From Acidobacteriota bacterium (GTDB taxonomy: Bacteria > Acidobacteriota > Terriglobia > Terriglobales > Acidobacteriaceae): DNA of 64,000 nucleotides. A program made the translations under genes and the position numbers. The notes under the pieces were generated by a model. The model made no database searches and was not told the DNA's origin. It saw only the letters and a list, made by a program, of their open reading frames with translations. Positions 50,282 to 51,622 of the stretch are shown piece by piece. Every line of letters starts with the position of its first letter. Position 1 is the first letter of the stretch. The stretch is taken from NCBI GenBank assembly GCA_013289795.1, contig JABCZH010000002.1, forward strand, positions 310,001 to 374,000, given 5' to 3'.

Positions 50282-51052
50282 ATGTCATTCGATCTTGCAG
50301 GCCGCAACGCCGTCGTCTTTGGAGTCGCCAACAAGCGCAGTATCGCCTGGTCAATCGCTCAGGGACTCCACGCCGCTGGGGCCAAGCTGGCTATCACTTA
50401 CCAGAACGAGCGGCTGGAGCTCGAAGCGAAAGACCTGATTCTGTCCCTCCCCGGCGCCGAGGCTTTCATGTGCGATGTCTCGAACGACGCCGAGATCGAG
50501 CGCGTGTTCGCGAAACTCAAGGACCGCTACGGCAAACTGCACACGCTGGTCCACAGTGTCGCATTCGCTCCCGCAGACGAACTGAAGAACGACTTCGTCA
50601 ACACCACCCGCGAAGGTTTCCGCGTAGCGCTTGATGTCAGCGTTTACTCGCTCATCGCAGTCTCCCGGGCCGCTGCGCCGCTCATGGATGACGGCGGATC
50701 GATCATGACCATGACCTATTACGCCTCAGAGAAAGTCGTCCCCCGTTACAACGTGATGGCCGTGGCCAAAGCTGGCCTGGAATGCACAGTGCGCTATTTG
50801 GCCTTTGAACTGGGCAAGAAAAACATTCGCGTGAATGCCATTTCCGCCGGCCCCATTAAGACTTTGGCCGCGCGCGGTATCGCCGGCTTCGGCGACATGC
50901 ATAAGACTCACGCTGAACGGGCGCCCCTGGGGCGCAACGTTGACGTGAATGAAGTCGGCGCTACGGGAGTATTCCTAGCTTCCGACGCCAGTTCCGGAAT
51001 CACCGGCGAGGTGATTTACGTGGACTGCGGGTATAACATCATGGGGTTTTAG
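50282..51052 (+). CDS. fabI: Enoyl-[acyl-carrier-protein] reductase FabI
   Basis: 256 residues, a typical length; GGGAG precedes the ATG. Catalyses the last reduction of each fatty-acid elongation cycle using NADH. FabI markers: GVANKRSIAWSIAQGLHAAG (nucleotide loop with the atypical SDR spacing), LHTLVHSVAFAP, and the catalytic pair in YNVMAVAKAGLE (Tyr-x6-Lys) preceded by MTYYASEKVVPR. IRVNAISAGPIKTLAARGI is the substrate-loop region. Other fatty-acid genes (accB, accC) lie 8 kb away on the opposite strand. The signal-peptidase-like gene follows after 24 bases, so co-transcription is possible. Confidence 0.95.
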   Translation: MSFDLAGRNAVVFGVANKRSIAWSIAQGLHAAGAKLAITYQNERLELEAKDLILSLPGAEAFMCDVSNDAEIERVFAKLKDRYGKLHTLVHSVAFAPADELKNDFVNTTREGFRVALDVSVYSLIAVSRAAAPLMDDGGSIMTMTYYASEKVVPRYNVMAVAKAGLECTVRYLAFELGKKNIRVNAISAGPIKTLAARGIAGFGDMHKTHAERAPLGRNVDVNEVGATGVFLASDASSGITGEVIYVDCGYNIMGF

Positions 51053-51076
51053 GATTCACCATTGAGGACCCGGTTT

Positions 51077-51622
51077 ATGAAGTGGAAAGCCTCGTGGTCC
51101 ATCTGGCTTGTAGGTTCGATTGCGTTGTGGTTATTGTCTGCGTGTGCACAAGAAAAGGTATTCACTCAACCGAACAGCGCAATGGAGCCGACCGTCTTCG
51201 CCGGGGAGAAGTTTGCCGTGGATATGAACACGTACCGGAACGCCACCCCCGGACGCGGCGACGTAGTTGTAGTTCGACACGATGATGCTTTGCTGTTGAA
51301 GCGGGTGATCGCGGTCGCTGGCGATACCGTCGAGGGAGCGGATTTCCAAGTCTTCCTCAACGGCGTAGCGCTTCACGAGGAATTTATTCAACACACCGGT
51401 AAGGATTCGGTCTTGAGGTCACCGTCTTCTTCGTTTCTCAAGACCTTCAAGCCGGCTAAGGTTTCAGCGAATCAACTTTTCGTGATGGGTGACAACCGTG
51501 ATTTCAGCGACGACAGCCGCGACTCAAGGTTCGGCACGGTCCCGGTCACCGATGTGATGGGGAAGGCCGTGCGAATCGTTAAGTCGAGCGATCCACGCCG
51601 CGCGGGACTCACTATTCACTAA
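51077..51622 (+). CDS. Signal peptidase I-like lipoprotein with Ser-to-Ala change
   Basis: 181 residues from ATG 51077 (GAGG upstream); a TTG at 51062 is an alternative. Instead of the usual membrane anchor, the N-terminus is a lipoprotein signal peptide with lipobox LLSAC (Cys23). The peptidase S26 boxes follow: PNSAMEPTV where family members have PSxSMEPT, so Ala35 sits in the nucleophile position; LLLKRVIAVAGD with general-base Lys75; and GDNRDFSDDSRDSRFGTVP. The Ala35-Lys75 distance (40) equals Ser43-Lys83 of B. subtilis SipS, supporting the alignment. It may be an inactive or non-canonical member, perhaps a substrate-binding lipoprotein; Ser34 could in principle act instead. Directly follows fabI. 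Confidence 0.8.
   Translation: MKWKASWSIWLVGSIALWLLSACAQEKVFTQPNSAMEPTVFAGEKFAVDMNTYRNATPGRGDVVVVRHDDALLLKRVIAVAGDTVEGADFQVFLNGVALHEEFIQHTGKDSVLRSPSSSFLKTFKPAKVSANQLFVMGDNRDFSDDSRDSRFGTVPVTDVMGKAVRIVKSSDPRRAGLTIH

What the first reader, a model, noticed from the sequence alone, without database searches (positions are those of the whole stretch)
51077..51622. Signal peptidase I-like lipoprotein with Ala in place of the catalytic Ser
Box B reads PNSAMEPT, where active signal peptidases have a Ser directly before Met. The Ala35-Lys75 spacing (40) equals Ser43-Lys83 of SipS, so the alignment is not shifted, and the Lys and GDNRxxSxDSR boxes are kept. The N-terminus is a lipoprotein signal with lipobox (Cys23), not a TM anchor. 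A conserved fold with a lost nucleophile and a lipid anchor suggests a pseudoenzyme, perhaps a binding or regulatory factor, or use of the neighbouring Ser34.
Basis: partly seen in the sequence, partly recalled or inferred. Interest (0 to 1): 0.6.

Follow-up and report, generated by a model that had tools for sequence, protein, structure and literature searches.

The report
Signal peptidase lookalike without catalytic serine
This acidobacterial gene encodes a signal-peptidase-shaped protein that has lost the serine which cuts proteins but kept the rest of the active site, and the same serine has been lost repeatedly in its small family, which suggests a protein that holds rather than cuts its targets.

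Summary
The gene at 51077-51622 (+) encodes a 181-aa S26 signal peptidase homologue (Pfam 109 bits) whose box B reads PNSAMEPT, with Ala35 (GCA) in the nucleophile position. Lys75 and GDNRxxSxDSR are kept, at the same 40-residue spacing as Ser-bearing relatives. It is not a sequencing error: the nearest relative, from another genus, also reads PNSAM. Both belong to a rare, well-supported clade of S26 proteins (16 members in 398 genomes of the family). Eight of the 16 lack the Ser (five Ala, three Gly), in five lineages, while Lys and box E are invariant in all 16. All 78 ordinary S26 proteins compared keep Ser, including paralogues in the same genome. Selection is still purifying in the Gly lineage (dN/dS 0.14). 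Ser34 is not a general replacement, because other Ser-less members have Ala, Lys or Thr there. The lipobox fits PS00013, but only in this protein; the nearest relative has none. Best reading: a membrane-tethered pseudo-signal-peptidase that binds but does not cleave, comparable in kind to SipA and SpsA but losing only the Ser and keeping the Lys pocket. Binding is inferred, not shown. A decaying accessory gene is the main rival.

The parts
51064..51068 (+). Shine-Dalgarno-like GAGGA, 8 nt before the ATG at 51077
   Evidence: sequence
51077..51622 (+). pseudo-signal-peptidase gene, 181 aa (P0001)
   Evidence: Pfam Peptidase_S26 109 bits, TIGR02227 101 bits
51077..51142 (+). N-terminal signal/hydrophobic segment, residues 1-22
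   Evidence: AF2 helix 2-23
51134..51145 (+). lipobox L20-S21-A22-C23 (PS00013 match); predicted lipidated Cys23
   Evidence: not conserved in the nearest relative L100
51170..51193 (+). box B, PNSAMEPT; Ala35 codon GCA at 51179-51181 where SPases have the nucleophilic Ser
51299..51301 (+). Lys75, the general-base Lys of SPases, retained (invariant in the clade)
51488..51520 (+). box E GDNRDFSDDSR (residues 138-148), retained
50282..51052 (+). upstream fabI-like enoyl-ACP reductase gene, 24 nt before the ATG, same strand; neighbour, not shared by related loci
   Evidence: identification by sequence inspection only

Best explanation
The gene encodes a pseudoprotease with the type I signal peptidase fold, held at the outer face of the cytoplasmic (or outer) membrane by its N-terminus, probably by a lipidated Cys23. 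Without the Ser35 nucleophile it cannot form the acyl-enzyme. Its retained peptide cleft and Lys/box E pocket would instead bind signal-peptide-like or other extended segments of exported proteins, so that it holds, presents or competes for substrates of the ordinary signal peptidases in the same cell. Shown here: the loss of Ser, retention of all other boxes, the S26 fold, recurrence in the clade, purifying selection in one Ser-less lineage, and ordinary Ser-bearing paralogues in the same genome. Inferred: loss of cleavage, lipidation, peptide binding and the biological role.
For: Ala35 with spacing of 40 to Lys75. The nearest relative, L100 (genome G530, another genus), also reads PNSAM; the pair is supported 100/96. 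In the 16-member clade Ser is lost in five lineages (at least four changes forced by well-supported branches), while Met36, Lys75-Arg76, GDNR, Ser144, DSR and others are invariant. dN/dS between Gly-type members L097/L101 is 0.144 and L101/L105 0.143, like Ser-bearing pairs (0.12-0.18). The AF2 model has pLDDT 84, and its best PDB matches are E. coli SPase I and the inactive homologue SipA. Three other S26 proteins with Ser exist in the same genome, so secretion does not need this one to cleave.
Against: No binding partner, no conserved gene neighbourhood and no activity data. The gene is patchy (1 of 6 genomes in L100's genus, 3 of 12 in G033's), so its function is dispensable. Two Ser-less loci have lesions in the N-terminal region (L097, L105). 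Selection on P0001 itself could not be measured: synonymous sites are saturated against L100.
Confidence: 0.55

Rival explanations
1. An accessory signal peptidase paralogue that is decaying: the nucleophile has gone first and nothing now depends on the protein.
For: Patchy presence even within genera. L097 has a deletion of about 140 bp with frameshift just before box B, and L105 has an N-terminal frameshift. Three normal paralogues remain in the cell.
Against: P0001 is a full-length intact ORF with a good ribosome-binding site. Lys, box E and the core are invariant, and P0001 and L100 still share 51% of aligned residues although both lack the Ser. dN/dS is about 0.14 in the Gly lineage.
Confidence: 0.27
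2. Still a peptidase: the neighbouring Ser34 (or a substrate-assisted route with Lys75) replaces the missing nucleophile.
For: Ser34 is adjacent to Ala35 and present in P0001, L100 and L103; Lys75 and the Lys-stabilising Ser144 are kept.
Against: The aligned residue is Ala in L093, Lys in L099 and Thr in L101 and L105 (codons), so it is not conserved among Ser-less members. Ser-bearing members can have Thr, Pro or Val at that position.
Confidence: 0.13
3. Sequencing or assembly error turned a Ser codon into Ala.
For: Single draft genome of its genus.
Against: Independent genomes carry Ala or Gly with different codons: GCA here, GCG in L093, L099, L100 and L103, GGT in L101, GGA in L105.
Confidence: 0.02

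Closest known systems
SipA of Streptococcus pyogenes (PDB 4n31; PMC4049620)
   Same: SPase I fold without a working Ser-Lys dyad, peptide cleft kept; a top structural match by target TM-score (0.77)
   Different: SipA replaces both Ser (Asp48) and Lys (Gly85) and serves pilus polymerisation with a sortase; P0001 loses only the Ser and is a distant relative by sequence (E 0.014)
SpsA of Staphylococcus aureus (PMC12445088)
   Same: dispensable SPase I homologue beside an active enzyme
   Different: SpsA lacks two catalytic residues according to the review; P0001 keeps Lys75
Bacterial type I signal peptidases (LepB, SipS, SpsB; MEROPS S26A)
   Same: fold, boxes, Lys, box E, membrane tethering, outside location
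   Different: no nucleophilic Ser; short N-terminus with a lipobox in place of a TM anchor
Ser-bearing members of the same acidobacterial clade (e.g. L094, L096, L102)
   Same: same clade, invariant Lys and box E; extra residues between DSR and FG
   Different: Ser in box B; multi-TM N-terminus

Membership tests
Bacterial type I signal peptidase (S26A) | profile match to the family | tested here: met
   PF10502 109 bits (cutoff 22.9), TIGR02227 101 bits (cutoff 47)
Bacterial type I signal peptidase (S26A) | catalytic Ser in box B | tested here: not met
   Ala35, GCA codon
Bacterial type I signal peptidase (S26A) | general-base Lys at conserved spacing | tested here: met
   Lys75, spacing 40
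Bacterial type I signal peptidase (S26A) | box E GDNRxxSxDSR | tested here: met
   residues 138-148
Bacterial type I signal peptidase (S26A) | SPase fold | tested here: met
   AF2 pLDDT 84, Foldseek E 5.8e-8 to 1t7d
Bacterial type I signal peptidase (S26A) | cleaves signal peptides | not testable with these tools
   needs biochemistry
SipA/SpsA-type inactive SPase homologues (a functional analogy, not one clade) | SPase fold with catalytic dyad lost | tested here: inconclusive
   Ser lost, Lys kept; SipA loses both (PMC4049620)
SipA/SpsA-type inactive SPase homologues (a functional analogy, not one clade) | linked to pilin or sortase genes (SipA) | tested here: not met
   adjacent genes are fabI-like and tsaE-like, by inspection
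Bacterial lipoprotein | PS00013 lipobox with n-region Lys and hydrophobic core | tested here: met
   LSAC at 20-23
Bacterial lipoprotein | lipobox conserved in orthologue | tested here: not met
   L100 has a Cys one residue off but Glu at -3; fails PS00013
Bacterial lipoprotein | lipid attached to Cys23 | not testable with these tools
   needs labelling or mass spectrometry

The most novel reading that the evidence does not exclude
In this acidobacterial S26 clade the Ser is not what is selected, even in the members that have it. The position drifts between Ser, Ala and Gly while the Lys pocket and box E are frozen, so the pocket would serve a non-proteolytic task (ligand or peptide binding, or Lys-based chemistry) in the whole clade.
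Probability: 0.15. Interest if true: 0.72.

Novelty: new variant of a known kind. Interest (0 to 1): 0.5.

Why it matters
The inactive signal peptidase homologues found in the literature here (SipA, SpsA) come from Gram-positive bacteria and have lost two catalytic residues. A clade that repeatedly loses only the Ser while freezing the rest of the active site is a natural series for asking what a signal peptidase does without cutting. It also shows an annotation trap: the NCBI equivalog model would name this protein 'signal peptidase I' at twice its cutoff.

Tried and rejected
Shifted alignment: rejected by identical Ser/Ala-Lys spacing in Ser-bearing clade members. Sequencing error: rejected by independent Ala and Gly codons. 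Conserved operon partner: not found; contexts differ (cupin-like gene at L100, trpE/trpG at G033, G606 and G617, ABC/DUF420-like genes at the g7 genomes, fabI here). Plasmid origin: only weak hits below 60% identity. The genome-contig scan returned only ordinary Ser-bearing S26 from other phyla. In one search five non-Ser readings were motif mis-picks, each checked; the sixth (L178) is the clade member L101 itself. No paper found describing Ser-less signal peptidases of Acidobacteria. An apparent early stop in L099 is at its extreme C-terminus and was not counted as a lesion.

Full report
What is there. The window gene at 51077-51622 (+) encodes a 181-residue protein. It follows a fabI-like gene by 24 nt on the same strand and converges on a tsaE-like gene (named by inspection). 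It matches Peptidase_S26 over residues 7-166 (109 bits) and NCBIfam TIGR02227 'signal peptidase I' at 101 bits against a cutoff of 47. Box B is PNSAMEPT: Ala35 stands where the nucleophilic Ser should be. Lys75 and the box E motif GDNRDFSDDSR are present.

Is the Ala real and is it aligned? In the closest homologue outside this genome, L100 from genome G530 (same family, another genus), box B is also PNSAM (codon GCG there, GCA here). Ser-bearing members of the same clade have the same 40-residue spacing from box B to the Lys. Neither an alignment slip nor a base-call error explains it.

The clade. A profile search of 398 genomes of the family found 16 loci clearly separated from ordinary S26 proteins: 138 bits or more, against 111 or less. 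A search of 399 genomes of the class added L144 (Ser) and a partial match, L145 (L144 box B read). A tree of 94 domains puts the 16 in one well-supported branch (99/95), together with one long-branch protein of another family, L066, whose box B has Ser. Eight of the 16 lack the Ser: Ala in P0001, L100, L093, L099 and L103; Gly in L101, L105 and L097. These fall into five lineages; well-supported branches force at least four changes. Outside the clade 78 of 78 ordinary S26 domains have Ser, and so do all the ordinary paralogues examined in ten genomes carrying a clade member. In contrast, Met36, Lys75, Arg76, GDNR, Ser144, DSR and several glycines are invariant in all 16.

Selection. Within the Gly lineage, both members of each pair compared lack Ser, and dN/dS is 0.144 (L097/L101) and 0.143 (L101/L105, near saturation), like Ser-bearing pairs (0.117, 0.177). 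So the domain was still under purifying selection after the Ser was lost, at least in that lineage. For P0001 against L100 synonymous sites are saturated and no value can be given. Two Ser-less loci carry lesions: L097 a deletion of about 140 bp with a frameshift ending next to box B (so its Gly codon and the Ser before it lie at the junction), and L105 an N-terminal frameshift. These could be decay or draft-assembly faults. All eight Ser-bearing members look intact. This keeps the decay hypothesis alive, though P0001 itself is intact.

N-terminus. P0001 has two Lys, a hydrophobic stretch and LSAC at 20-23, matching PS00013; no ordinary S26 protein compared and no other clade member does. Most clade members have several TM segments before the domain (judged from the sequence; weak DUF6677 similarity in one); L107 and L100 have short N-termini. 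L100 has a Cys at nearly the same place but Glu at -3, so its lipidation is doubtful. The lipid anchor is therefore a prediction for this protein only and is not tied to the loss of the Ser.

Structure. AF2 with 24 sequences gave pLDDT 84, pTM 0.78. Foldseek best matches are E. coli SPase I 1t7d (E 5.8e-8) and SipA 4n31 (E 1.7e-7, target TM 0.77). Coordinates could not be read, so side-chain geometry was not measured.

Mechanism. The most likely reading is a membrane-tethered pseudoprotease: fold, cleft and Lys pocket kept, acyl-enzyme chemistry impossible. SipA is the precedent, as an SPase-fold protein without the dyad but with a conserved cleft, required for pilus assembly and proposed to act by binding a component at the cell surface (PMC4049620). 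SpsA is a dispensable homologue lacking two catalytic residues (PMC12445088). P0001 differs in keeping the Lys. What it binds is unknown; no partner gene is conserved nearby. Ser34 as a substitute nucleophile is possible for P0001 but cannot be general, since aligned residues in other Ser-less members are Ala, Lys or Thr.

Verdict. Real, not an artefact; a new variant of a known kind (pseudo-signal-peptidase), with recurrent loss of the nucleophile alone as the interesting point. The function is inferred.

Noticed in passing
L097:853-1617 (L127): Gly-type member with a deletion of about 140 bp plus frameshift ending right beside box B, suggesting pseudogenisation or a draft-assembly fault.
   Followed up: partly
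L125, L126, L129 (genomes G033, G606, G617): In one genus the clade member lies beside tryptophan genes: trpG-like gene downstream in G033, trpE-like gene upstream in G606 and G617; only 3 of 12 genomes of the genus carry it.
   Followed up: partly
L064/L093, L101, L102 and others, N-terminal ~130 aa: Multi-TM N-terminal domain (PGxGQ motif, weak DUF6677 similarity) fused to an S26 domain; role unknown.
   Followed up: no
L128, L132, L134, L138: Four Ser-bearing members share one conserved neighbourhood with a HEAT-repeat-like gene downstream; three of them also share a DUF420-like gene upstream and three share ABC-transporter-like genes.
   Followed up: no
window:51655-51684: Inverted repeat GCAAAAGGC...GCCTTTGC between the convergent gene ends; not called a terminator by the scan.
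   Followed up: no
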